The notes beneath the pieces were generated by a model. It was not told the origin of the DNA, searched no databases, and saw only the letters and a program-made list of their open reading frames with translations. Below, one piece after another: positions 1 through 64,000 of a stretch of DNA of 64,000 bases (position 1 is the stretch's first letter; every line of letters begins with the position of its first letter). Source of the DNA: Antedon mediterranea (taxonomy: Eukaryota > Echinodermata > Crinoidea > Comatulida > Antedonidae). The translations under genes were made by a program, and so were the position numbers. Location of the stretch: the NCBI RefSeq assembly GCF_964355755.1, contig NC_092671.1, positions 13,186,501 through 13,250,500 on the forward strand, written 5' to 3'.

Positions 1-2460
1 ACTTGTGCTCAGGTTTAATTCTTTATAAGTTATACCCGACAATAGTTTTTTGTCACAAATTCACAAAACACTTATTGTTCGCCGTAGGGTATTAAGGTAT
101 CTTAGAAATTGATTTACAGAAATATACATTTATACATTATAGTCTGACTGATTGACCACAATTATGGCTACGCCCAAGGCAGAAACATGGCCGCCAAAAA
201 TAAATGGGGCAATTATAGGTCATAGTTTTATCAGCGGTTTGGCGGACTCATTTTCCCTCAAACACGGGCTAGGGGGCGAGCAATAAGTATTTACACATTT
301 AAGGGTTTATGATTCTAGGCGTATCCTTCACATTTTAACTACTTCATTATATTGCTATTTTCCGAATTGTAAAGATTTAATTCAATACTTATATAATAAT
401 AAATTCAAGAGATTTCACTAACACTACTGAAATCCAGAATATTTTGTAAATCTGAGCATAGTACAGATTGAAATAAAAGGCATTGTAATTAATCATTGAC
501 TCCAAAAATATATATAAAATCGAAACATTTGAATAGGCCACTGTAAATAACCCAGATGTTAATATGATAGAATAAACTAAATTGCAAAATAAGTCATAGA
601 TAGTGGCCATATTCTGTGTTGTGAAACCTTTGGAGACATAAACTTCAAATGAAGTGCAATTTTGTGGAAAATGTTCCATTACCAAAAAAATATACCAAAC
701 AAAATTCTAGTCTACAAACGTAGACAAGATACATGCTTTTGGTTTCACATTAAGTGTCAATCAAGATATATTTTGGTTCGCATTTTATAGGTTAGGATGA
801 AAGTCTGCACCGATTTTGTTACGAAATATGGACTATCAGGAGTGTATTACAGTACTTGCTTTATATTTTCAGATGACAGTATCTTGCTTTGTAAAGGTAT
901 AAGGGCCAAATTAAGCAATGCAAACATATATACAATTGTAGACCAAAGCATGCAGAAACTTAAAAAAATGAACACATTTTTGTTTTTTTATCATCATTGT
1001 CATTTCAATTGATTTTCTTTTCAAGAAGTACATTCACTAAAGAAGTTTGGATAAATAAAGAGTTATATATTATTTGACAGCTGCACAAAAGTCAAAGCTA
1101 GATGTGTAAACTTTGTTTGGAAAAATCTTACAAAAGTATTTTAAAGTAACCGAAACACGATTTTAAGTTTCGCAAATTTTAATAATTATTAAAATAATTA
1201 ATTTTACTGATAAAACTTTCTGAAGTTGAAATTGTGTTAATATTTAATAACTAGTATTACTTTTCTGCTGTTTCTGTAAATCGTAGATGTACACATACTA
1301 ATTATATTGTATGGATGATAAAGACAGTTCTAAAGTTGCAGAATCAAAATATCCATCTATTTAGAGAATTCATAAATAGTAAAACAAATATAGCTACATT
1401 TAGGTTGCACAGAGACGTATAGTCGATAATGCTTTGACAGTATTGATTTTGTAATTGAACGCCGTAAAGCATGATTTTGGAAGTCAAAAAAGAAGATTAA
1501 AAGAAGAATGGGTTTAGATATCAGACATTCCAAATGTATTACGTGACAGATGAAAATGTATAAATTGATAAAAACACAGGAAGTGAGAATAATCTATTTA
1601 AAAAAAATAATGTTAGTGATTGATGGTATCTAAATTAATCTTTGATCAAAAGAGGCAATCTATAGCCTTAACGTTACGTTTATATTTATATCACCATTCA
1701 AGAACCCATTCCATTAGAAACCTCATTCAGGGTGTATTTATTCCTTAACCTATTCATTATTAATGAATAATAAAGACATATGAAAAGGTGATACCTCAAT
1801 TTTGTCGGGGCTTATATTTGACATAAATGTAGTAAAATAACCAACTCTGTGTGCCTAATTGATTTGTAAATTCTTTTCAACAATAATAATACTAGTTTTT
1901 TTTACTAAATACTTTTTTTTTTTTAATATTTACTTCTATGCAATGTTACAATATTTGCCTACCGCACCCTCTATCATCTTTTCTTGTTTCTGACCAACAG
2001 CGGGCGTAAGGCATACTATTAACTCAAACATAAGGTACGATTTTTAAGTAGTATTTCGTAGTAGTATAATCGAAATCCTGCTTAAAATTTTCGCTAGTAA
2101 TTTTTAACTAGACTCATAATCATATAGTCATAGAAGCGAGTGTAATTTCCGTTTACTGTTCCTTGACGAGACGATTGTAAAAATTATAAATTTTAAAGAA
2201 TACATAATACAAACAATAGGCCTAGGCCTATATCTATAGGCCTAAAGTCAAGTGAACATTATTTTCTATTTAAAGATACTACTTAACAAAGTTTAGCAAC
2301 ATTTTTTAAGTTATCGTTATTTTTTATTCTTCCGAAAAAAAAACATCAACAAAAAGTAACAGATATTACTGTGAGAAAATCACACTTACTACCACTAACG
2401 TGGCAACACGGTTATTAAATGCAATGCTCTTGCTTCTTCTAGACATATTTGTTGTCTTAC
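1..2460. other. Gene-poor stretch downstream of peptide gene 1
   Basis: I see no convincing coding exon here. Further exons of the minus-strand precursor at 2656-2461 must lie in this stretch or beyond the left edge. Several AG acceptors could be joined in phase (for example just above 550 and 1330), but none yields a recognisable peptide. At 2217-2245 there is a cluster of overlapping TAGGCCTA palindromes. The rest is AT-rich unique-looking sequence with short homopolymer runs near 1912-1924. Confidence 0.5.
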
Positions 2461-2656
2461 CTTCAACGCCTGGTGCAATGTTATTTCGTAGCGAACGCAT
2501 GGCTGGTAAAGGATAATGTTTACTACAAACCATTCTTCCATTTCCATCCATCTCGCACCTCTGTCTTTTGTTAAGCTTACTAGCTGTAATACATTCTCCT
2601 TGATATGATAGCAATACTACATAAACGATTAGTCCTATAATACGGTTGGTATTCAT
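2461..2656 (-). CDS. Secreted cysteine-containing peptide precursor, first exon (partial)
   Basis: I do not recognise the family. The ATG at 2656 opens a hydrophobic signal peptide (about residues 1-22, ending near GEC). A LNKR dibasic site follows, then a segment beginning QRC, with two cysteines spaced C-x9-C and the stretch HYPLPAMRSLRNN. An N-terminal Gln after KR would become pyroglutamate, as in many neuropeptides. The frame runs into a good splice donor, G|GTAAGA, at 2460 (phase 1), so the protein continues in an unseen exon. A TATA-like box lies about 65 bases upstream. The layout (signal peptide, dibasic site, short cystine loop) suggests a peptide hormone or neuropeptide precursor. 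The downstream open frame past the donor is probably intronic. A chance ORF remains possible. Confidence 0.5.
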
Positions 2657-2717
2657 GATTTTTATGTTAGCTAATCGGCTACTACAAGTACGAATGAAAG
2701 CAGAATCTTCTCCAAGT

Positions 2718-2726
2718 TTTTAAATA
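2718..2726 (-). promoter_or_regulatory. TATA-like box of peptide gene 1
   Basis: Minus strand TATTTAAAA, about 62 bases upstream of the ATG at 2656. This would place initiation near 2690 and give a 5' leader of roughly 35 nt. The position matches that of the TATA boxes of the other two peptide genes. Confidence 0.4.
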
Positions 2727-3663: not shown

Positions 3664-4260
3664 CTATACTTCGGGCAAGTATACAGTAGATGTATAGAGA
3701 TAATTATCTACTAAACTAACTACTAAAAATAATGAGTGTTATATAATCCTTCACCACATTTAAGGTTAAACTAAGACGTAACTACATTTACTTTATCAAA
3801 AACACATCGGGTAAACCAGAAATGTCTTCATTTTTATATAAACTAATAATGTAATCAATAATTGTAACATGATAAACTTACGTGTATTGGAGTTTGATAA
3901 GTACTCCATTCCAATGGGTGGGGTAAACGGTGTTGGATTTAGATTCAATTGATGATGACGGTGATAGTAGCCAGAGTCTTGAAAACGATCATCTTGATTC
4001 TCCAAATATATTCGGTTATCAACTGAGTAGGGACGCTGTGGTGGTAGACGGTACAATCCACTCAGCGAGTTACTGACAGCATCATGTCTTTTGCCAACAC
4101 GAATTGGAAACTTTGGTACACTGCGTTTTTTAATGTATTGTTCTGCATTATGCTGCCCTAATATAAAGCATCTTGATGGTGCTAGTAACACGTATAAAAC
4201 TAAGCACAATAAGTATATACATCTTTTGGACACGTTAGCGGTCATTTTGATGTTTTTCAT
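3664..4260 (-). CDS. Secreted neuropeptide-like precursor with an amidation site
   Basis: Exon 1 is 4260-3882. It encodes a signal peptide (about residues 1-31, with hydrophobic core YLLCLVLYVLLA), then a short spacer ending IKKR, then SVPKFPIRV followed by GKR. That is the standard signature for a peptide released by dibasic cleavage and C-terminally amidated. A long Pro/Tyr/Asn-rich propeptide with few further cleavage sites follows. Exon 1 ends at a near-perfect donor, C|GTAAGT, phase 1. A candidate terminal exon, 3722-3664, follows a pyrimidine-rich TTTTTAG acceptor, joins in phase and adds about 19 codons before a stop. That join is tentative. A TATAAAAG box lies 47-54 bases upstream. 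I cannot assign the peptide to a named family. Confidence 0.6.
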
Positions 4261-4306
4261 TTTGTAACTGAAGCGAATGTGTATGTTGAATTAATATCTG
4301 GGTGAT

Positions 4307-9760: not shown

Positions 9761-12700
9761 CTATATTGTTGGCCTAGTAAAACCAATAATTCCAATAATT
9801 GATGATACTAACTAGATGGCTCGGTGTATTTATTTTGTTTTAAATGTATGGGGCTCCCTCTATAATGGTTGCGTTATCTTACTGTACTTATAGTTTGTTT
9901 TTTGATTAACATATACCGTTTATTATTATTATTATTAAAATACACAGCAGATTATTGACTTCAATTCATAATGCTATGCTCGTCTAGCAGGTAATTTTCT
10001 TTAAACGTTGCGATATTATTATTCTTTATTGCCAGTATTATAACAGAAACGACGTGATAAACTATTCCTAATACATTAATAGGAATCAAAATCACAATAA
10101 CCACATGTTAAGATTAAGCTACCAACAAAGTCTGTGAACTTTTAACCGAAGTTGAAAGCAAAGTTAAATACCATTAATTAAATACCAGTTGAAGTAGTAT
10201 TTTCAATCGGTTTATGTTGCTTAAGTAGATTTTCAATTTTCAACCAAGCAAAAATTAATTGCATTACAAAATGCAATAATAGAAATTTCATTCGGCTGAT
10301 GTTGCCATAAGTCATTCTTCTTCCGAAAACAAAAGATATTTTGAATCAATTATTTATTTGAAAAACATTGTCGTCATCAATGTCTCAAGTAAACAAGTGT
10401 TAGTGAGCGGGATCGAATCTCGTTCTTCGAACTACAAAATATTTTGGACGAAATATAAACTGAAAAACAAGGTTGTTCATACGATGATGTTAGAATACGG
10501 CGAATAAAAGTCTTTCGTCACACACTACACATTTTGTCATTAGGCGAAAACAAATTGCAATAACTTAACGGATCAACTTAACCTATGACCCGAACGAAAT
10601 TGACTGTCATTAATTCTTAAAAGGAGGAACGTAAACAAAAATAAGTACAATTACCGTAAGCTTTATATTTAAAGGGTTGCTGCACTTTTATAGACAGCAA
10701 TTTATTTTAATCATTAGAGAAAATGACGCCTCGCTTAAAAGCTGGTATACATAGGAAGTACTATGACGAATAGACGTCAACTTGTTATAATGTTCGAGCT
10801 CTTCAATTACCATTTGCAAATGTAAGAACTTAGCCGAAGCCAAATTAATAATAATTAATTCATGTTATTGATTATTAGAATATTTTGTTTAATGTTATTA
10901 TGTAAGCGACTCGAAAACACCAGTACAAAATGTAGGCACGCCTACTTAGTATTTTTCTTTAGGCTAAAAATATAACATTATTTGCAACCACTTGTTTTTG
11001 GTGGTAAATCCAATGGATCATTATTAAATATATAGACCTAACCTTTAAAACAAGTTATTGTTCCCGAAAGGATTTTGACAGATTTCAGTCTTCTGCCAAC
11101 CTTGTTGCTTGTTTCTAGTTGCTATTAGTAGTAAGTTTCATTATATTGCATATTTATGTAGTTTCATTTACATTTTATATTAACATACATAGACTCCTCA
11201 AAATATGGGTATCGAGTGAGGACACTGTCATTGACACGCGTGCGCACTGGAAACCTGACTGAACTATTTCCTATCTCATTTTCTTTGCATATTTCTATAA
11301 CTTTATGAAACTATACATGAATGTTCATGTATCATATGGGGAGGAAACTATATTCAATCCGACAAAAACACCGAATACTCTAAAGACCTTTAAAAGTCAA
11401 CAGACTAGAAATTCAATTTCCAATCAGAGACCAAGGATGAACTTTCAACAAAGAATTAAATTAAATTTACGATTGAATTAGTTTATTCTGTAAGCCCACT
11501 GTTTCTACATTCTACAAATTATCATTCTAATTCCCTATTTGCACATTTAATTTCCATAAATAACAAATAAATTAAGATGAATTGGCCATAAGTAAGTTGT
11601 TTGTAGACGGATGCAGATTGAAAATAAAGTACATGAGTGGTCTGTAAAATGTCACTACTAATTATTCTTCGTAAAGATGTTCAATTTTGTACAAAATGAA
11701 TGCGACAGAATTGTTTCTATTAAAATAAATAAATCAAAGTTTAACGCTGGATGCATAACCAGAAACAAGCATATTCAATGCTATGTTGTTAGCAAATGAG
11801 CTGTTAACATTAAGTTAGTGCCCTGAAAGTAGGCCTACTGCATTTTAAACGATGATATGAATATAACATTTTAGATAATGTGCCGGTTGGGCGATTCTGA
11901 AAAATCCGAAAAATAGGTACGTCCAAAGTCCAACAGCCTTATAATATTCATCATCACGAACGCTAAACGTCTTGCGACTTAACAAAACTTTTCCCATCAG
12001 AGCGATTACTTTTGTTTTGGGTGGTTTTGGGTCATCCTCTTGGTTTCTTGGCTTTTCTCATAGATTCGGATACAGATGGGATATAAGAGTCAGACAAAAA
12101 AGGTGTCCACACATGTCAAGCGTCTTTATCACACTGCTTCACTTTTCCTCGTTTGTGCTGTTATATAAATCTTTGTTTGTTATTGTATTAGGCCATCTGA
12201 TGCCGAAAATATGTCAATTTCGTCTTCAATTATGCAATTCACAGTCCAAAGTTTACTAAAGAATATGCTTGCCACATAATTGTTTGAAAAAGAGCAGTTT
12301 AAAATGCAAAGAGAAAACCCCTCTGATCAGCTATAATTCGAAGTGAGTTTACAGAATATTAACATGTTGTATAATATACATACATTTCATGATTTATATC
12401 AGATACAATACTTCGTATTGATTGCTGTAATTTATAGGCAATATTATTATGATGAATATATAAATATTATTTGAAGGCTGTATTGCGTTAAAGGTAGTAT
12501 GTAAATGTTGTAGAGTTCGATTTGATTTACATGTATTAAATCTGAATTTGTATGAGAACAGGTGAGACGAGACAACGTCATGCTCATTTCTGTAGAAGAA
12601 TGATTGTCATTTAATATCAAAGTGTCCGATATTGCTATAATCATCATGAAAAGGCAATATAATTTGATTTCAGGATTTGTTCAGCCGATTTTGAAAGGGT

Positions 12701-15628
12701 ATCATGTCTAGCAACTAGATAAACAGTTTGTAAGTATCGTGTCTACAGACGACCCCTTTCCACTAAGACTCCATTTAAATATCAGCATACTCCTTATGCC
12801 TCTCTTAAATGCATGTGAATGGATTTCTACTGTTGGGAGTGACTAAATTCACAAATTAAAATATAATACAAAAACATACTTTAAACTATTGTGATTAAAC
12901 TAGACTCACTGGATAGTATAACAATAGCAAGCTGTTTTGAAACTACAAAAACATTACAAGAATGAAAAAGCGATTAAAACCATACAAAGGCAATATAATA
13001 TATTCATTTCATTCTTTCCATAAAACTAAACAAATGTATTAATAGCTACAATAACAAATGCGATAGAAAAATATTGCCCTGTATCTTGTTTGGTAATAGG
13101 TATATTTTCGTACGATAAAAGGAGGTTATTTTTTGTAGTGATGCCCTAGATTGTAGGCTATACAACAGTTTTAATGCAAATGTGATTTTTATTATTACTT
13201 CGAAGGCAATTTATATTAATTGTCGAGATGAAAACCGAATGATCATATTTTACTAATTCGGAGTAAATTTTCTATTATCAAAGCCGCAAGCACTTCTGTC
13301 TGTTTTTTTTATTACTTTTTGCAGCTTAAGATACCTATGTTATAAAATATGCAATTGTAACCATCAGATTACTTACCACTGACAGCCTAATCACGTTATA
13401 ATTATACTTGTCGTAGCTAATTTTCTGACCTTTATTTTAGGTGATAAGTTCTTATTAATCTTTATGTCATTGAATTAAATGAATGAAATCTGAGTAGTGC
13501 TTCAACAACACGTCTAACTACTCAAGCTAAAACATTAAAACATTTCATTAACTGATAATAATTTTACTCGAACGTATATCGGCTTACATTTCTAATAAAT
13601 ACTACAAGTAGGATTTGAGACTCAAGCTGGATAAATTACCAACGTTACAACGGCAATCAAATAACCATAAAGTGAACTTCATAATCAGAAAGATTTCCGT
13701 TGATGTAGAATAGTTAACATTTAACTTTACACGAGCGGGATGGACTCGCGGTTTTTCGAGTGAAATTCGATAAATTGTTTTTTTTTAAAAAACAATTATG
13801 GCTACGTAATCGTATTTGATTGATTAATATAAAGAGGGACCACGCGTTTTGCACGAATATCATATCACGGGAGACAATATTCACTGATTTTAGCAATGCC
13901 TACCATGGCTACCAGGGTCAATGGATTAATAGGCCTACGGTTAGTCTACCAATACCAGGTCAAAGGAGTAGCCTACGAGCTGGGCCAGAAAACATCTGAT
14001 ATTACACATAGCCCTACCTTAACTTTAACTTATAAAACTTAAAATGTAGGAAACACTACGTAGTATTGATAATCACTCAACTTCAATCTTTATTGCTGGT
14101 TTTTAATTGCGCTTATTTCCCACCACTACATGCACTTTTCAATGAGGCAGTCACTTTAATTAACAACTAAAGCTTAAGAGATTTCAAAGCTATTGTCTAA
14201 TCACCTGTGCGTAAAATAATTCAACAAACAAGTAGCTTAAAGGGTAGCTCCGGTTAAAAAATATATTGTTTATTATATAGGCTACCTTTGCAACAACATT
14301 GATAGTGATCAAACTTTTTTTCCGAAAGGGATGAAGCCGAGCGAGCGTTGTAAAAAAAGCCGATGATTTTTTTTTTATACGAAAATTGACATTTTATGTA
14401 AATTCGAGGCATAATTCTTAAGGGAGGATATAAATCTAAAGAATAATCAATTTTACATAGGAAATTACTATTTTTATGGTAAAATTTTAACCGGTTAACG
14501 ATAGTAAATCACTGAAAATAATCAATCTAGGCCTATACGGTAACTTTACACATTTTCTAGCACCACTTTTTAAAAAGAAGCCTATTTAACGAAGCTTATT
14601 CTGTCGATAAGTAAGCGATGTTATGTTTTAAAACAATATACGTTTAACCCCAAAGAGCTAACCTTTTAAAGTCGATAGGCGTGATCGTTAATCCAATAAT
14701 GATAGTTGAAACATTATTTATTTCCCCTAGAAGTTACTCATAGGGATTTTATTTGCAAATATACATAGGCCATGGCCTAAAATACAAAATAATAATTTTA
14801 TACAACAAATCCTTTCTTGGAGAGCCAACATAATATTGAATACCGAAAGCAACACAAGTAAGTTGTTTTTTGTCTAATAACTTAACATTTATTTTATTTC
14901 AACATCGTTTTTTTCTCTATAAGATAAATGTAATATCTGTGATTGTTTTCAAAATACTCAATCTCAACAGAAATTTTTCTCACGTTGATAGTTAATATAG
15001 ATTATAATCCCTAAGGCGTTACGTTTAGTTGATTAACAATCCCTAATGCTTAAAACGTTGGCGCATGCCATTAAACTTCCTTATTAATTTCCTCGAATTG
15101 GATGGCATAGAATATCTCATTTACCAAATTAATCACATAATTATGTTTTTTTGTATCTGACATTTAAAAAGTTTTTATACTATATTACACTATAACGTCT
15201 AGTGATACCCAAACAAATGTAATTAGTGGGTGTCAAATACCACGAGTTATCATTTAACTAAAACGTTTCATGTTACACCATTTAAATATTTAACGACACG
15301 ATCATTTGTCCATATAATTCGTGTTCCATGCCTAAAAAGAAATCACAAAATAAAGTTTAGTAACATGGAGTATTAATGCATACGGTACTTAAGTTGCCTC
15401 AACAGAGCTGCGCATGCGCACACTTCAACCAACGGTAGAGTACAATTTCACTCTTCTCTGATTTAACGGATACGAATAAAACAATGACACAAGCGATGAA
15501 GATACGAATGCAGTGATTGTCAGTAGTTGAATATAAGAATATTGAAATTTGAATGTTCAATTTTGTATATTATTTATGATGATTTATCTACAAATATTTT
15601 AATATAAATGATAAAACTTTAAACTTAC
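9761..15628. other. No gene seen (possible last intron or 3' flank)
   Basis: AT-rich sequence with no supported exon apart from the alternative acceptor near 15467. It contains isolated TAGGCCTA palindromes (11830, 13931, 14529) and a short TTA repeat at 9921-9939. Confidence 0.4.
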
Positions 15629-18600
15629 ATCTTTACGAAACATTTCTAATAGTGGCAAGCGTAGATTATCATAGTCTCTTTTACCTGAAAAGTAAATATC
15701 AATAATTAAAGTACATTTTAGGAAAACAAAGCTTGTTGAAATTTTTTCAGAATTAATACTGATCCTTATGTATTATTTTCATTATTTACACCAAGAAGGA
15801 TATAATTTAGCGTTTAAAAAGTGGAACTTTTAGCTGGGACTTCTAGCTCCCGAGTCCCATACGTTTTTGTCGAACAAATAGATGGAATTAAATAAAAATA
15901 AGCCGGTGACTTGTTAAATGATCGTAAGAAACAGTGTCCTAAAGCAGGGTGGTAACAATATTATAAGGAAATTATAAATCACATTTAGGCCTAAATGTTA
16001 TTTTAAATTTTAACAATCTGACGTAATAGACATCTGATCTTCTGAGGCACCACAAAGATGTGCACAATTTGGTATTGGAAATTATTAATTTTAACTACAA
16101 CTATTAAGGCTACCACATACAAAAACAATAATCAAACTGTATTATATTTGAACATGATTTGTATCTATATTGAATGATAGTGTCTTTGAAATTGTGAAGT
16201 CAATATCTCAACAGCATTTTGCTAATGCAATGATTACTTTTGCTGTTGTGTGTATTTATCAGCCACAAACTGCCACCTCGGTTTACGCACGTTTCGCTTA
16301 TAATTAACCCGGACACTGCACTTCAGGTGTTGCCTGTTTCAAAACAGATCAATTAGCCTTCTTACCAATCTATTCTGTGATCAAATATTCTTTAGTGATA
16401 ATGAGTTTGAATGTGTTTACATTACTGAAGTCCTCCTTTTAAAGAATCTTTTATAACCTATTCCAGGAAGTAGCAATTTTTTGTAGTTATGAGCACTTAC
16501 CAGCAATATGCGAACTACATACTTTAGCAATACAGGATATCTTGTAATTGCACCGTTTGCTACAAGGAACTCTCTTCTCTATTAAAGCACCTATGAAAAC
16601 AAAAATAAGACACTAATAAAAAGCCCGTCAATACAAACATACAACTGGCATTCCCAAGAGCAGAGAGTGCTGATTGTTCACACTTGTTATTTCTTTGAAT
16701 TACATTTTACAAAATGATAAGCAAACATTTTAAACTCATAAAAACAGTACGATGCCATTAGAAATGCCGATTTCTAACAAGCTGGTGTGTTAATGTGTTC
16801 GAGTAATGATACTATTATTATATTTCGAATTGAATCGGTAGACCATTCGGTTTTATTGACATTACCGTATAGTGCACCAAGTCAAAGAACACGGTACTGT
16901 TTTTTTAAATCAGTTATATCATGGTTAAGTATTATACTCGTGCTGATAACTAAATTGCTTCTATTCAAAGATTATTCTATTTGGCAGTGCAATCAAGTTG
17001 AATAATCTATTGGATCGGTTTGATGATTATCCAATTTTGTAATAATATGAAACTGTAATGATATTGTGGTTAATCAATTGGAATCAAGAGATATTGAATA
17101 TAGATGAAAATCCAATTGAGTGTATTGTTTCATTTACATAAATCTGGAGGAGAAGCCACACTGTATATAGAATGATTTTAAAGCATTGAATTAAATACAT
17201 CAATGTTTCCAATTCATATTTTGTTGGGAACATGATGTGTTAGTGTGTGTGTGGGTTGTGCAATAAGTCGTCGCCATACTTCGATAATCAAATAATGGCA
17301 CACCCCATGGAGTATATGAAATTCAAGCATGATTTCAAAATATAAAATACAGAAATACAGTATGTGCACTGTGCAATAATAAATGTGTAATGATCAATTT
17401 CAATCCATTATGGATTATGCATACGATATTCACTAAAAAAATAAATACATAAAAATATATGAAATGAAAATACAACATGTTCAGTATTATTTAAATACTT
17501 TCAATCAGACCTCCAAACACTAAACAAGATAGTATGCGGAGACTAAGAAAATGAAAGAAAAGTCAGATTAAAATAAAACGTCCTGAACTAGATCGACTAA
17601 AGCTGGTTATATATTTTTTTTCTTTAAAAATCATTATATATTTATATATATATATTATTGTCAATGAGTTTCTCTATTTACATAACGGAATCAAAATATT
17701 CATCACACGTTGAATACTATTACTCGGAAAAAATCCTTATAATAATCATAACTGTCTAACACTATAAATTTGTCTAGGCCTAATGATTTCATGGTATTTT
17801 TTTGTTAACCTTGACTGATTTTCCCTGATTGAATATCATGCCTTCTAATCCACTCCTACTCTCAACTGTGTTTATTAGAAACCAATCAATTTATAACCTA
17901 TTCGAGATTTTCAATTTAATCTCAAGCAACCTAAGCTTCCAGGCCAATTGACCCATTAATGTTGACTTCTTTTTTTAAATAATAAATGTTAGTTTCAAAG
18001 AGAAATTTCAATTTTACAACAACAATAGTTAATTATGAATTGTATAACAGCGTGCATATTGCCGTTGACATTGTTTTTAATTAGTTTACAAAATAGATAA
18101 AGTGGTTGAAATTGACTGATACTTCAGAAAATACAATTTGTCAGTTAACAGTTATCGAGGTAATTGCAAAGATAATTCACTTGAAAATCGGTGCACTCTG
18201 TTTTCTAATACAATTATAAACACAATACGTCCTTATCTTCAAAAGAAAAACATAATATGCCTATATATGTTTCAGCATTATAGTAGAATCAGAATGATAT
18301 CAGAAATGTGTGTCATTCATTGTATAATTTAAGGGCTAGTGTATCATTTTAGCAAAAAAAGTTCACTTGTTTGTTGTACACTTCAGCTGGTTGTCTATTA
18401 AGATGAAAACGTGGTTTATGCGTGCCTCTAATAACTATAGATAACAAAAATTAGAAAAATACCGAGTACGATGAAGATAACCCATAATCACATTGGCATT
18501 GGATATAAGCATACGTATTCAGAACTTTCTAGTATGTTTAAAATGATCCACACAAGGTACATTAATATAATGTTGAATTTAAATGAACAATTACAGTACG

Positions 18601-21600
18601 CTATTAGATTTTTTTTTATCTCATAACAAATGATAATTTAGCTAATTCACGTTAGCTACAGTACAACGGTGCTGGGAAAATTGGGATTTACTTTTTTCAT
18701 ATTAAGAACACGATATTCTTTATAAGTACTGCAGGAAATCATCATGTCTGCTTTTTGTAATATGTTACAGTATACCTTAATTTTAATAAGCGAGTGCTTA
18801 GTATTGATATATAATGTGGTTTAAGCTTGTATAATTCGGAAACGCTCACTCAGATATCACGTGACAGTCCTACTGAGTAAACTAATATGTTTTAATTTAG
18901 ATTAAGCTCAGGAAGAATCTCACATTTTATTTGACTAAAGATACTGAATTTCCTTATCTTTAAATAACGCCGTGATTTTGCGTTTACATAATGGCTTTAA
19001 TTAAACGTCGCTATCGGCAACAGCTCAACAACCATTTGCTATTTTAGGCAAAGACACGGGGCTGGCAGGCAGGAACAGCATCCCAAAAAGTGAATACGGT
19101 ACATCGTTTCTGCTAAAAAGATATTACGTATTTTAAACAACATCGTATTTTAATAATGGTATACACTTTCAGTACAAAACCGATTCTTATTAATGGCAAA
19201 TCGATAAACCAATACATAATTCAAAACAATGATTATTGATAACCTTGGATGAACTCTATTCGAATACAATGGGAATGTTGGAAAACACATAATGTTAATA
19301 TACTTAATCGCTTCGGCTTTTAGATTTTTGACGCAATCATTCATCTATAATTTATTTATATATGCAGTCTCGATGTCAATAGAACTTCAATTAATCACCT
19401 AAAGTAATAGCGTTAAAACATAGCAAGATGTCATTTTGAAGTTAATAATTTTTTTTTAATTCAAAGGTTAATACAATATAATTTAGGATCAGCCCTTGTC
19501 GTCAAGCATTAAGTGCTGCGGATTAATTTTAAGATAATGTCAATATCACCATGTTAAGCAAATTCATTCATTTTCAAACGTAAAATTCATAAAACTGAAC
19601 AAAAATGGCTTACTGAAACCCGCCTTTCAAATCTATTTGGAATTACAATGTTGGGCACATTACGCTAACACAGAAATTAGTATTACAATAACAGTATTAA
19701 CGATTAATACCTTGCTTTAACTTTCCTTAATTCATTTGTTGTTGAAAATTAAGAATTAATCAGCATAGTTATACCCCGGTAAACTATTTTTCCTACTTTA
19801 TATAAACTGCCGTAACTAATATTTTACAAATAGATGCCCATTGTTGTAATACCGTGTAGGTTTTACTTCAGTGTCGAGTTCCAAAATTAAATTAAAAAGT
19901 ACAAGTATTTGATGGGTCCAGTGGCCGTATTCACCAACCACACTTGAGTGAGATAGAGTCCTTAAGTGTTTCACTTAAGCTAATGAAAGGTATTCATTTA
20001 GATAAAAGAATTGTTTAATTGTAAGGGTCTCCCTTCGCATAAATGGAAATGGTGTTTGGAAAAATGTGATACAAACTACTGAAAATAATTATTCCAGTTT
20101 ACTACATTTAGGAGGACAGTAAGAAAAATGAGAATATGCCAGATTTATCAAAAATGTTTCAATCGAAGTTGAATTCCTTGTATTGATATATTTCGACGCT
20201 AAATTCAAATTGACAACTGCTCTGTCAGGCCTTTGACTACTTTCAAACTAAAATAATGAAAAATTCGTCCGCATCATCATCTTACACTATTATTGTTACG
20301 ATCGCTGCCACTTATTAAATATAGGTATTGGTGGCAAAGTATCATTAGTAAACAAGTATTCGAATCTATTTGCTATTAGTGCGATGTGATACGAAGCTTT
20401 ACATCAATAAACATAGCATTTATGGTGATGAAATATTGAATTGCATTTGATTTATATGAGCTTATATTTCTTATAATATACAATATAGATATTATATGTA
20501 GGCCGAATCCGATATTTAAAGTAAGTTTTAAGAAAGCTCAGAAACATAAATCTTCATAATTATGTCGAAAAAACTCGATATCGTTCTAGTTTGACAGTAT
20601 AAATAAAGATTGAAAAATCCGTTAATCCTGCCTTCTCAATTGTAAATCTCGTTTTTAATTCTTTCTGGAATAGGTTGGTTAAGGTAGATTATTCTAGGTG
20701 GAAGAGATAGCCTGCAATAGTCGGTTTTATTTCTAAGCATGTAGACTTTCGTAGATGATGACAATATAATAGTAATAAATATATATAAGCAAAAAACACT
20801 AAAAAAGAAGAGATGAATATTTGCTGCGATAGAGCTTGGATATCTAGAGAGTTGCGACACGGATACTCGTGAAACTTTCTACTGGAGGTTTGTCAGACCT
20901 GATTAGATCCCGTTAAACCGGTGTGTACTCACGTCTTGATGCAATCAACGACCATGTGTAACGTTAAACTGGTAAACGTAAAAGTTGGTAGAAGAAAAAG
21001 AGAAATCAAGCGAAATAGTAGTAGAGCGCTCTAACGGATATTTTGGATATAGTATGGTTAAAAATTAATGTAAAACATAATTAACTAAGACGCCAAATGT
21101 ATATGGATAAAAAGGTGAACAGTTCATTAAAATGGGCGATCAGTCATGTAACGATATTTAACGCTTCCGGCCTAAGTATATCTCAGATCACTGACAGTTT
21201 TAATTAACATGAATCAAAGTTTAAATTGGCGCAATTGGAAATGGAAAAACATTTAGCGATTTTCTATTTGTTATTAAAAATATTGTGTTATCTAATATTT
21301 TCACAGCAGTGTAAAAATGCATACATGGATTTGTGTTCGTTTAATGTAGGCCTACACGTACTAACATAAAGATTTGTTGCAGACACCGGCTAATGTTGCA
21401 TATTTATTATACTGATGAAACACGTTTAATTGAAAACTACTATTACGGTTGAGATATAATTATCTGTTATATTTTATTTGAAAACTATACAGTATAACAC
21501 AAATAATTATTTTTATTTGTTTCACTAAAATTGTCCACCGTTTAAAATATTATGTACATGTGTTATTGGGGTGTAAAGTTTCATTCCCTTTCTAAGATGG

Positions 21601-24600
21601 ACAATTTGTGCAACTTAAAAGAAGCCGTTATATTTGCATCAGTTTGTACCTTTATTACATCTTATTTTTAGGTTTGCATCTCCCTTTAGCGGCCTACTAA
21701 ATACAGTTATATCTAGGCCTATTATCAAACACAGTATATTGCTAGTATTTGACATGGATTTACAACAATACTGTCAAGTCCAAAATATTATCAATTCCCT
21801 CAAGTTTGTTTACATTTCCTTTATAAATTAAACTCAATATCACTTATTAAATTATGAAGTATTAATAGCATAAATAGAAGCCTGTCTTCTTTTCAATTAC
21901 GAAGAACGATTCTTATGAATACATGACTTAATTGGCTCTCAGAACAATTCCATTATCTGAGCCGATATTAGTGTGTTATGCATTTAAAACACTTCTTATA
22001 TAAACATAAGCTTCACTTCTCTATTAGTTCTTCTCTTTCAAACGCTACACAAACAATTGTTTTAAGGCGTGATTTATGTTAAAATAATTATTATTGAAGT
22101 ATCAGAAACACAACTAAAATTAGTTTTAATGATGATATATATATTCTGTCTTCCTAGTTGTTAGCCAATTAAGATTTCTTCTACTTCGGTTGCATTCGGT
22201 CTGTAATTCAATAACTAATAACTAAACAAACTCAAACACTTAGATTTTATATACAGCATTTTGATAAAAACTATACGAATTTGACCGAAATTTACCTAAA
22301 TCAACCTAAAAATGTTCGTATTTTGTTGCGAGCAATGTTACACGCACATTTCAATGCAACATAACTCTTACTAACATTCAATAGTTACCTGAAACTGGAT
22401 TGATAATAAAGTCGTTTCCCATGTCTAATGTTTTGCTGTCTGTTTTTATTTATTTATTTCTTTCATGTGATAAAACTCTAAAAGTGGATCACAGATACAT
22501 AAGAAAGTTTTATGAAATTTTTTTTTCTTTTTATATTTGGTGAATTAAGCCTCGCAACCAGTTGTAGACAACTTAATGGAAACTCTAAAAATATCAAGGT
22601 GATGTAGATATTAGGTATTTATCATCGGTTTTATTCTTTAAATTTCCAATATAATTAAACTTGACTATTTCTTCTTATCAATAAAAGCGTTTTTCAAATC
22701 ATTTTTTATACATATATGTTCAATTAAAATCCCCATTAGCAAATACAAAAATGTATATTGTATAGAATATCGAGTTACAGGTTGGCATGTTATATTTAAT
22801 CTTTAGGCAATTATTCCGAATTGGATTTTCGAAAGGACAATCAAATGAACTATACAAACTATGATTTGTATATGAATTTACCTTTATAAAACGGTGACGT
22901 GACATTTATTTATGGTTAATGAATTTAATTGAAGGTCATTTTACGAGAAAGATGAATTTATCTTGAATGATTGAAAAATGTTTTGTATAAGAAAAACTAA
23001 TTACACCTCTATTGCAGGTAAATTGATTTTGAAACTGTTTTCAAACTTAAATGAGTTACTGTACATTGTTAGCTAGATATATTTTCTATGTGTCTACCAA
23101 AAATGTATCTTCATTTTCACCGATAGCAATTCGATTTAGTTTTTTGTTTTAAATTTCAATATGGAATACAACAAGGGAAATTAGCAATTAGGCTTGTAAT
23201 GAATGAACAACATTGTAGATCGTGCGATTACACACCTTTAAATGATTTGGGGCGCTGTGTTTTCTCAATTATGATGCAAATGCAATGAAACTAATTCTAA
23301 CCTTAAATTGGAATACATACTTGAATGCTAACAATGCTCTTAATTTTTTGAAAAAGAAAAAAAAAAGACATACATACTGAATGTTTGACGTACTGAACTA
23401 AGAATATTTTTGGAAGGAATGGTAACTGAAAACCTCGTATTTGCATAAACAATGGGTATATCAAAAATATTAAAATAGTGATTAATGGTGATGTTGATGT
23501 TATATGATATAAATTAATTATGTACAACAATGTACCACCAGTAGTTGACAACACTTATGATTGATATTTTAATATTATGTTAAAAACAATGATTGATTTA
23601 ATACAGAGTGTACCAGATGTATTTATAAACCAAAAAAAGTGATTAATTATTGCATTAAATGATAATGAAAATGGCGTGAAAAAAATATAATAATGCCAAT
23701 TAATCATTTTAGTAAATAAAATTCCATGACAAGCAATACTGTATAAATGACAGATTTACATACACCTAAAGATGTGACGTTGATGAAAAGAATTGATTTG
23801 TAAAGGTTGAGGAAACGATTATGAGAAAATGACCACATTGATACCATTAATTGATGATGTCAACTTTGGCAGTTTTAAGAATATTAAACATAGCATTGAT
23901 TAAAGAGTATAGTTAATTATGGAAACTCAATATCAAATCGATTATGCTATCTAGCAATAACTACAAGAATATATTACTACTATTCATTTGGTGTATAATG
24001 AACTTAAAAGAGTAATAAAGTTAATAATGTGCCGAAGACTGTATATTATTGATACTCGACCTAAATAAAACAAGTGGTTATAAACTAAACCTAGTTAACC
24101 TGAAAAGAGGAAATCAATTATTCTTTTAAAGACAATATTACTAAATTGTGTTCGCTTTTAATCTAATAAAGGCATTTATATCCAGTTCCTTTCTATTTTA
24201 GACACTACACTATTTTTAGAGAATTTTTACAAGAACAAAAATACAGAAAATGCACATTAATGTGAAACGGTAAAGATGACAAAATATGCGACTGGTGAAA
24301 ACAATTAACCTAAACAAAATTCCCACAGAAAGCTGGTTTGGAGTTTAATTCACCGTAATATTTTCACTTTACATGATTTTTATCTTAACCGTTTTAAATT
24401 CTCTTTATATCATCTTAAATAAAGAGCGGAAAATCTATAAGTGTCTTTCTTTGTGCTATCTAAGTAAAGCATAAAATATCATGGGTTTTGTTTTCAATGT
24501 TTTCAAAATTACTTGTTGGAAAATTACTTACATTCACCTACAATAATGTACTTCTTAAATACAAACACATACTTTAAGAAAAATGAACTAGTATGCTTTG

Positions 24601-24796
24601 TTTATAAATGGATTCTACAAAAAATTGTTAAGTTTTTATATCTTAGCTTACAGTTACCTGTTAACGAGTTCGTATAGGGTCCTATAGTACGTATTTAAGA
24701 ATAAAATGAGGCAAACATGAGTATTTGACAAATAACGTACTTACCTGTTGTACACATGAACATGAAAATAAGGCAAATTAACGTTGTGTGTTTCAT
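15629..24796 (-). CDS. Spliced four-cysteine amidated neuropeptide precursor (3' end unresolved)
   Basis: Exon 1 (24796-24745) encodes a 17-residue hydrophobic signal peptide from the ATG at 24796 and ends at a G|GTAAGT donor, phase 1. An optional exon (22439-22389, 51 nt, phase 1-1) adds a short propeptide. Exon 16590-16501 has a strong TTTTCATAG acceptor and a G|GTAAGT donor. It encodes an EKR cleavage site and then a peptide with cysteines spaced C-x3-C-x5-C-x4-C, ending SSHIA. Exon 15684-15629 (acceptor TTACTTTTCAG, donor T|GTAAGT) completes Gly-Lys-Arg, so the four-cysteine peptide would be cleaved and amidated, and adds a 16-residue tail. All joins keep phase. A TATATAAG box lies upstream. 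The order signal, two-disulfide peptide, GKR resembles orexin-type and other cystine-bearing precursors, but I do not assign a family. The last exon is not resolved. Confidence 0.7.
15685..16500 (-). other. Intron of the four-cysteine peptide gene
   Basis: This sequence lies between the two best-supported exons. It starts GTAAGTGC at 16500 and ends TTTACTTTTCAG at 15685. I see nothing else in it. Confidence 0.6.
16591..22388 (-). other. Large intron of the four-cysteine peptide gene
   Basis: AT-rich, with no supported internal exon. It holds a short (TA)n stretch at 17636-17655 and scattered TAGGCCTA motifs. A minus-strand frame at 20860-20636 has a hydrophobic segment but no donor or promoter and is not called. 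Confidence 0.45.
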
Positions 24797-24866
24797 GATG
24801 ATTGAAAATGGTCTGCACCCGTATAGTAGCATTCAAATTTGAATCAAAGCTGTGAATTCTCGGAAA

Positions 24867-24874
24867 CTTATATA
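24867..24874 (-). promoter_or_regulatory. TATA box of the four-cysteine peptide gene
   Basis: Minus strand TATATAAG, 71-78 bases before the ATG at 24796. It predicts initiation near 24840 and a leader of about 45 nt. It directly follows a TAGGCCTA palindrome. Confidence 0.6.
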
Positions 24875-25084
24875 GGCCTACAGTGAGGCAGTACAGAACT
24901 GCTGTAGCATCAGCCAATGAATGAAGCCATGTATAATTAGACCTGAGAGTGGTACGAACTCAAATCTTATTAACAACATTCCAAGTTTAATTATTGTGAT
25001 TATGTCGTTTGATCCCACGTAAAACGTTTCAAATAATACAATGGGCAATTTCATTGTGTTGTTCACGAATAATAATGTTTTATA

Positions 25085-25166: not shown

Positions 25167-26099
25167 AGCCCATATCTTGCTAATTATGTACAAGTTACTG
25201 TAACAGTTCATACGGTATTATGTCTAGCGACACTAAACAGCACGTATCGTTTCTTGTCTGCTGACTACAACCTTTCTCCCACATGGCCTCCACATGGTTT
25301 AGTGTCTCATGAAACTTACGAATAATAAAATGGGTGTAACATTTGTTGTTTATGAACAATTTTGTTCCCAACATTATTTATAATACGTTATTGGACTCGC
25401 GTACACGCTTCAAACATTACAATGTGTTTTGTGTGTTTATGTACAATTTTCCAATGTTATAGACACGTTATGAACAATTGTTTTTTAGCACCATAATATA
25501 CCTACTACTTTGGTACAATTTCAAATCTTCATGACTTCAAAGTTTCATTATTGTAACAATGCAGTTTGAAACCACGGTGTGTTTAATAACATTACAATAT
25601 TACGCACAGATGGCAGGATATTTGTGTTATATTATCATATAAGTTGCTTCTATTTTATAACAATAGGATTAATTTCCTGATATAAGGTTAAAAAATGATG
25701 CATCATCATCGAATTAGAACTTTATCTAATTTTTCGAGGAAATTTAAAACGTGTATTTGACAATAAGCCTTTATATGTAACCTACACATTTTATGAAAGA
25801 ACTATCACTAAAGTTTGCTTTATAATTGATGAAATATGCTGTATTATGACAAAATAATTTACAAAGACCGCAAAACAAGGAGTATATCTTTACATACACT
25901 CCGATTCACATATGTCTATCATAAATTCTAACAACAACGTCTTACTGTACATTCCACGTACAAAGATCATGTTGGTAAGATTTGGTATCATCCTGCCTCT
26001 CGGTGGTATTTTCAAAACCAATTTACGTGGCATACGGTACATTGTACGGTACTTTGTACAAATACTGAAACAAAAAATACAAAGCTTGTTCATAGGTCA

Positions 26100-34092: not shown

Positions 34093-64000
<29,908 letters not shown>

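What the first reader, a model, noticed from the sequence alone, without database searches (positions are those of the whole stretch)
15629..24874. Hidden four-cysteine amidated neuropeptide gene
Seen: a TATA box, a signal-peptide exon, an optional 51-nt exon, an exon with EKR then cysteines spaced C-x3-C-x5-C-x4-C, and an exon completing GKR, each with good splice sites and agreeing phases. No exon is long enough to stand out as an ORF. Known: signal peptide, dibasic site and Gly-Lys-Arg define secreted amidated peptides. Inferred: a two-disulfide neuropeptide, possibly orexin-like or lineage-specific.
Basis: partly seen in the sequence, partly recalled or inferred. Interest (0 to 1): 0.85.

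Follow-up and report, generated by a model that had tools for sequence, protein, structure and literature searches.

The report
Feather star amidated two-disulfide peptide gene
A feather-star genome carries a small, multi-exon gene that very probably makes a secreted, amidated signalling peptide held by two disulfide bonds; it is not an orexin, and may be one of two such crinoid peptides already predicted in print.

Summary
The gene model largely holds. On the minus strand, exons 24796-24745, 16590-16501 and 15684-15629 join in phase to a signal peptide, a dibasic site and VPCSKRCNYKISCIAKVCSSHIA-Gly-Lys-Arg. Exon 1 has the best of 559 donors in that 10 kb. No such model arose in 300 simulated 64-kb strands, nor an exon like the third in 108,709 bases of other DNA of this genome. 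I add a likely terminal exon, 15331-15302, giving 75 residues. The optional 51-nt exon is poorly supported: 3 of 16 acceptor pyrimidines, against 8-15 in 14 comparison exons.

The genome is a crinoid close to Antedon: it encodes crinotocin and matches an A. mediterranea orexin primer exactly. Its six-cysteine orexin lies about 13 Mb away, so the orexin reading is rejected. A 2022 crinoid survey reports two amidated four-cysteine precursors, AnjapPCNP6 and AmedPCNP7, whose sequences I could not see; this may be one of them. Best reading: a crinoid peptide hormone precursor without detected paralogs. Main rival: a cationic antimicrobial peptide. No transcript or peptide evidence was available.

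The parts
24867..24874 (-). TATA box (TATATAAG), about 70 nt before the chosen start codon
   Evidence: read; consensus match only
24745..24796 (-). exon 1 (coding part): MKHTTLICLIFMFMCTT + G; signal peptide; phase-1 donor CAG|GTAAGT
   Evidence: (donor 9/9, the only 9 of 559), hydrophobic core
22389..22439 (-). claimed optional 51-nt exon; poorly supported
   Evidence: donor 8/9 but acceptor 3/16 pyrimidines; 14 comparison exons 8-15/16
16501..16590 (-). exon 3: ALIEKR then VPCSKRCNYKISCIAKVCSSHIA; four-cysteine peptide; phase 1 on both sides
   Evidence: the only exon of this kind in the window, both strands, at the two stricter settings
15629..15684 (-). exon 4: completes Gly-Lys-Arg and encodes DYDNLRLPLLEMFRKD; donor GAT|GTAAGT, phase 0
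   Evidence: acceptor TTTCTTTTTAG|G, 12/16 pyrimidines, first of four such acceptors listed down to 9000; sequence
14893..14898 (-). candidate poly(A) signal AATAAA for the proposed last exon
   Evidence: such hexamers are common in this AT-rich DNA, so weak

Best explanation
A real crinoid gene encoding a small secretory peptide precursor (75 residues in the short form), with no paralog detected. Shown by sequence: start codon, hydrophobic leader, in-phase exons with strong splice sites, EKR before and GKR after a 23-residue peptide with four cysteines. Inferred: the leader is removed, prohormone convertase cuts after EKR and GKR, carboxypeptidase trims Lys-Arg, the exposed glycine is turned into a C-terminal amide, and two disulfides form, giving VPCSKRCNYKISCIAKVCSSHIA-NH2 (calculated monoisotopic mass 2504.23), which acts on a cell-surface receptor as a neuropeptide or hormone. 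It may well be the gene, or an ortholog, of one of the two four-cysteine amidated crinoid precursors already predicted (AnjapPCNP6, AmedPCNP7), but their sequences could not be compared.
For: Joined frame and agreeing phases. Donors of 9, 8 and 7 of 9 and acceptors of 14 and 11 of 16, against 7 and 7 for donors and 15 for the acceptor of the crinotocin gene, and 8-12 for 13 EGF exon starts, in the same genome. 0 of 300 simulated strands with a full model; 0 like exons in 108,709 control bases, both strands. Only its own three exons are found in the genome at E 10 or better. The genome is an Antedon-like crinoid, and a crinoid survey reports two amidated four-cysteine precursors (PMC9793003). 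A second amidated-peptide-like ORF lies on the same strand about 11 kb downstream.
Against: No transcript, peptide or second-species sequence could be examined. No Pfam match at E 1 or better. The peptide holds an internal Lys-Arg (CSKRC) that convertases might cut. Intron 1 is 8.1 kb, so another first exon is possible (an ATG exon at 26093 also fits the loose model). The terminal exon is a prediction; reading through the last donor also ends in a stop (VSLKFYHLY), with an ATTAAA at 15603 beside it. The genome search is exon by exon on short exons, and the query held the read-through tail, so diverged paralogs could be missed.
Confidence: 0.75

Rival explanations
1. The peptide is a cationic, amidated, two-disulfide antimicrobial peptide of blood or epithelial cells, working like the beta-hairpin peptides of horseshoe crabs and spiders, rather than a hormone.
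For: Net charge +4 from Lys/Arg with no acidic residue, 23 residues, four cysteines, an inferred amide. Two-disulfide beta-hairpin antimicrobials in the review passages seen have 16-25 residues and, where stated, charges of +4 to +8; tachyplesins and gomesin are amidated (PMC4410394 passages).
Against: No paralogs found in the genome, whereas antimicrobial families are often multi-copy (general knowledge). An EKR site separates leader and peptide. The single-sequence fold gives a short hairpin, but only one of five models rises above mean pLDDT 53, so it decides nothing. The only sequence match among solved structures has E 3.8.
Confidence: 0.15
2. A highly diverged orexin-type precursor.
For: Amidation signal, several cysteines, secretory precursor.
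Against: Four cysteines, not six; no adjacent or near-adjacent first pair; spacing C-x3-C-x5-C-x4-C. A frame that fits the published orexin is elsewhere in this genome, and only one orexin precursor is reported for A. mediterranea (PMC9793003).
Confidence: 0.03
3. The exons are a chance alignment of good splice sites and open frames, or belong to different transcripts.
For: A looser search (donor 6+, acceptor 9+) lists 6 like exons in the window, 3 of them variants of this one, and 198 in all over 200 simulated strands, so open cysteine-containing pseudo-exons are common when splice sites are weak.
Against: At the strict setting that this exon meets (8, 14) none arose in 200 simulated strands, and 13 at (7, 11); with flanking signal and GKR exons, none in 300.
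Confidence: 0.07

Closest known systems
AmedPCNP7 and AnjapPCNP6 (predicted crinoid neuropeptide precursors, PMC9793003)
   Same: Crinoid, secretory leader, one C-terminally amidated peptide with four cysteines, dibasic cleavage (text description)
   Different: Cannot be compared: the sequences are in figures and supplementary files not held here. It can match at most one of the two, since the paper says that these are probably not homologs of each other
Ambulacrarian orexin-type precursors (ArOX1/2, AjOX1/2, AmOX)
   Same: Short secretory precursor, amidated cysteine-rich peptide before a dibasic site
   Different: Six cysteines with the first two adjacent (or split by one Lys in AmOX); this has four with other spacing; the orexin frame of this genome is at another locus
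Chordate orexin-A type
   Same: Four cysteines (PMC4772807); amide recalled
   Different: Recalled spacing begins with two adjacent cysteines; no Pfam match of any kind here
Beta-hairpin antimicrobial peptides (tachyplesin, polyphemusin, gomesin)
   Same: Small, cationic, two disulfides, amidated (PMC4410394)
   Different: Tachyplesins and gomesin are shorter (17-18 residues) and tachyplesins more strongly charged (+6 or +7); no Pfam match

Membership tests
Secreted amidated neuropeptide precursor (general class) | N-terminal signal peptide | tested here: met
   MKHTTLICLIFMFMCTTGA, nine-residue hydropathy peak 3.17; no dedicated predictor was run
Secreted amidated neuropeptide precursor (general class) | Dibasic site before and Gly-Lys-Arg after the peptide | tested here: met
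   EKR and GKR in the joined frame
Secreted amidated neuropeptide precursor (general class) | Expression in neurons or endocrine cells | not testable with these tools
   no RNA data
Echinoderm orexin type | Six cysteines, first two adjacent or split by one residue | tested here: not met
   four cysteines at positions 3, 7, 13, 18 against PMC4772807, PMC6586643, PMC9793003 (passages)
Echinoderm orexin type | Is the orexin locus of this genome | tested here: not met
   orexin-fitting frame at about C2:26.27 Mb; window lies at C2:13.19-13.25 Mb
AmedPCNP7 / AnjapPCNP6 | Sequence identity or orthology with the published precursor | not testable with these tools
   sequences only in figures and supplements that are not held; text gives four cysteines and an amide
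AmedPCNP7 / AnjapPCNP6 | Crinoid; one amidated peptide with four cysteines | tested here: met
   description; the amide is inferred from Gly-Lys-Arg in both cases
Beta-hairpin antimicrobial peptide | Antibacterial activity; hairpin fold with two disulfides | not testable with these tools
   single-sequence model unreliable

The most novel reading that the evidence does not exclude
A crinoid-lineage peptide hormone family with its own two-disulfide framework (C-x3-C-x5-C-x4-C, amidated), distinct from orexins and from both published four-cysteine crinoid precursors, missed by transcript surveys because it is encoded in several short exons and little expressed.
Probability: 0.25. Interest if true: 0.5.

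Novelty: new member of a known kind. Interest (0 to 1): 0.35.

Why it matters
Crinoids are the sister group of the other living echinoderms, and the 2022 survey found no relatives for most of its newly predicted crinoid precursors (PMC9793003, section 45). An exact gene model, a calculated mass and exclusion from the orexins make this peptide directly testable. It is one more predicted precursor rather than a new kind of system.

Tried and rejected
Orexin membership: rejected on cysteine number, spacing and locus. A first orexin search with the sea cucumber peptide found nothing; that empty result alone proved nothing, and a published primer sequence was used instead. That pattern search gave four places, one without mismatch and three with three mismatches; the backward control pattern gave nine, so only the perfect one was followed. 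The partner primer matches with one mismatch, closing a 462-base product. Pfam: no match for either form of the precursor at E 1 or better. Solved structures: one chance-level match, E 3.8. Fold prediction of the exon-3 stretch: mean pLDDT 71.9 in the best model but 47.9-52.8 in the other four, so no fold search was made. Searching the literature for letters of this gene and of the two neighbouring ORFs: 0 papers for six terms. Looking for other texts on PCNP6/PCNP7: only the 2022 paper. Alternative start codon at 24832, in frame: possible, but it would lie about 11 nt from the expected cap (inference). Alternative acceptor at 16612 that would prefix CLIFVFIG: a reading of the pyrimidine tract, seen only at the loose setting. 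A query of three published A. mediterranea peptides found one place, encoding the first of them; the other two gave no match in that joined query, which does not show absence. Dropped rows: 14 EGF motifs were listed, and the one at 47952 was dropped as an exon start because its frame continues from the EGF unit before it (its AG has 7/16 pyrimidines); the other 13 are predicted, not transcript-proven, exons. In one search the row for exon 5 was given a coordinate one base off and returned nothing; the figure used comes from the scan in the same call.

Full report
What was checked. The claimed exons were read from the minus strand and joined. The short form reads MKHTTLICLIFMFMCTTGALIEKRVPCSKRCNYKISCIAKVCSSHIAGKRDYDNLRLPLLEMFRKD without a stop; the exon borders agree in phase; the glycine of Gly-Lys-Arg is split across the intron before exon 4. 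The TATA box and the cysteine spacing are as stated. No stop-to-stop ORF of 100 residues or more overlaps 12260-24877.

Splice sites. In the 10 kb from 25000 to 15000, minus strand, the donor of exon 1 is the only one of 559 GT sites that matches the nine-base consensus fully; the donors of exon 3 and of the claimed optional exon are two of six scoring 8; exon 4's is one of 22 scoring 7. Exon 3's acceptor has 14 of 16 pyrimidines (2 of 236 YAG sites have 14, one has 15); exon 4's has 11, as have 19 of 236. As a yardstick, the crinotocin gene of the same genome has a first donor of 7, a neurophysin acceptor of 15/16 and a next donor of 7, and 13 EGF exon starts of the mucin-like gene in the window have acceptors of 8-12/16, with candidate donors of 6-8 where any were listed. 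A fourteenth EGF motif lies inside an exon and was dropped. These comparison exons are predicted, not proven by transcripts. The proposed sites are therefore within or above what likely real exons show here. The 51-nt exon is the exception: acceptor 3/16.

Chance. A scan for a signal exon, a four-cysteine exon after a dibasic site and a Gly-basic-basic exon, at cut-offs equal to the model's weakest sites, found on the real minus strand seven signal exons, one cysteine exon and one GKR exon (three models that differ only in the first exon), on the plus strand no model, and in 300 order-3 Markov strands of 64 kb no model. The cysteine exon alone, in any phase, arose 0 times in 200 simulated strands at the strict setting it meets, 13 times at the middle setting and 198 times at a loose one; the window itself holds 1, 1 and 6, three of the six being variants of this exon. 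In 108,709 bases of other DNA of this genome (15 loci), both strands, it arose 0 times at the strict and middle settings. The cut-offs were chosen after the model was known.

Completion of the gene. The first acceptor with 12 or more pyrimidines downstream, 15331 (one of four listed down to 9000), opens a phase-0 reading of AWNTNYMDK and a stop. This gives a 75-residue precursor. Reading through the donor instead would give VSLKFYHLY and a stop, with an ATTAAA beside it at 15603. Poly(A) hexamers are too common here to decide.

Whose genome. The window lies in a 354-Mb assembly of 18 contigs. Its one neurophysin match has about 8 kb upstream an exon encoding CFWRTCPVG-GKR, the crinoid peptide crinotocin (PMC9793003); that the two exons form one gene is inferred. 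A primer for A. mediterranea orexin matches once without mismatch, its partner with one mismatch, and a published A. mediterranea peptide, GLFPTGGMDPLGASYFT followed by GKR, is present letter for letter. The host is thus Antedon or a very close feather star; no call names the species.

Not an orexin. Between those primers lies a frame with KCKCPDARSGDCRIPPGCRCPLVRALCRSKPKSTLVGKR after a leader-like stretch: counted from the residue after Arg-Arg, 37 residues with the glycine, six cysteines, the first two split by lysine, as the paper describes for AmOX. It is about 13 Mb from the window on the same contig. Four cysteines spaced C-x3-C-x5-C-x4-C do not meet the defining features of echinoderm orexins.

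What it most likely is. A search of the genome with the precursor found only its own three exons (diverged paralogs could be missed). Amidated by inference, dibasically flanked and secreted, it best fits a peptide hormone or neuropeptide precursor. The 2022 survey of three crinoids lists AnjapPCNP6 and AmedPCNP7 as amidated four-cysteine precursors that are probably not homologs of each other. Their letters are in figures and supplements that I could not read, so I cannot say whether this is one of them; I put the chance that it is already in print at somewhat over one half (judgement). The chief functional rival is an antimicrobial peptide: positive charge, two disulfides and an amide are shared with tachyplesin-like peptides.

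Limits. No transcript, no second crinoid genome and no dedicated signal-peptide or splice predictor were at hand. The single-sequence fold is unreliable. Cleavage, amidation and disulfides are inferred. The internal Lys-Arg could be cut.

Noticed in passing
window 3796-4290, minus strand (start codon about 4260): ORF with signal peptide, KKR, SVPKFPIRV and GKR: a second candidate amidated peptide (SVPKFPIRV-NH2), with a TATA-like box (CTATAAAAGA) upstream. No Pfam match; its only other genome match is weak, E 1.66; 0 papers for the letters searched.
   Followed up: partly
window 2366-2719, minus strand (start codon about 2656): ORF with a signal-like leader, NKR and then QRCEMDGNGRMVCSKHYPLPAMRS: possible two-cysteine secreted peptide; may be single-exon with AATAAA soon after the stop, or spliced after VEG. 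No Pfam match; the genome search for it did not complete. With the finding and the ORF above, three peptide-precursor-like genes lie on one strand within 23 kb.
   Followed up: partly
window about 42100-60300, minus strand: Mucin-4-like gene: NIDO, MUC4-type C8-3 and EGF_CA matches over cut-off, AMOP below its cut-off, and 14 DIDEC-type EGF motifs.
   Followed up: partly
window 63036-63155, minus strand: LDL-receptor-class-A-like exon ([39 protein letters not shown]; family name recalled, letters).
   Followed up: no
window 56670-56742, minus strand: tRNA gene, 38.4 bits, within the span of the mucin-4-like gene.
   Followed up: no
L022 (G000:C3 about 159143-159229, minus strand): The frame with GLFPTGGMDPLGASYFT-GKR continues into further copies such as AFPGSGGMDTLGNGYFT-GKR, whereas the 2022 paper describes AmedPCNP4 as having a single amidated peptide.
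   Followed up: no
window 53424-54071, minus strand: ORF that ends in a stretch resembling the C-terminal part of a retrotransposon reverse transcriptase (recalled; no Pfam match).
   Followed up: no
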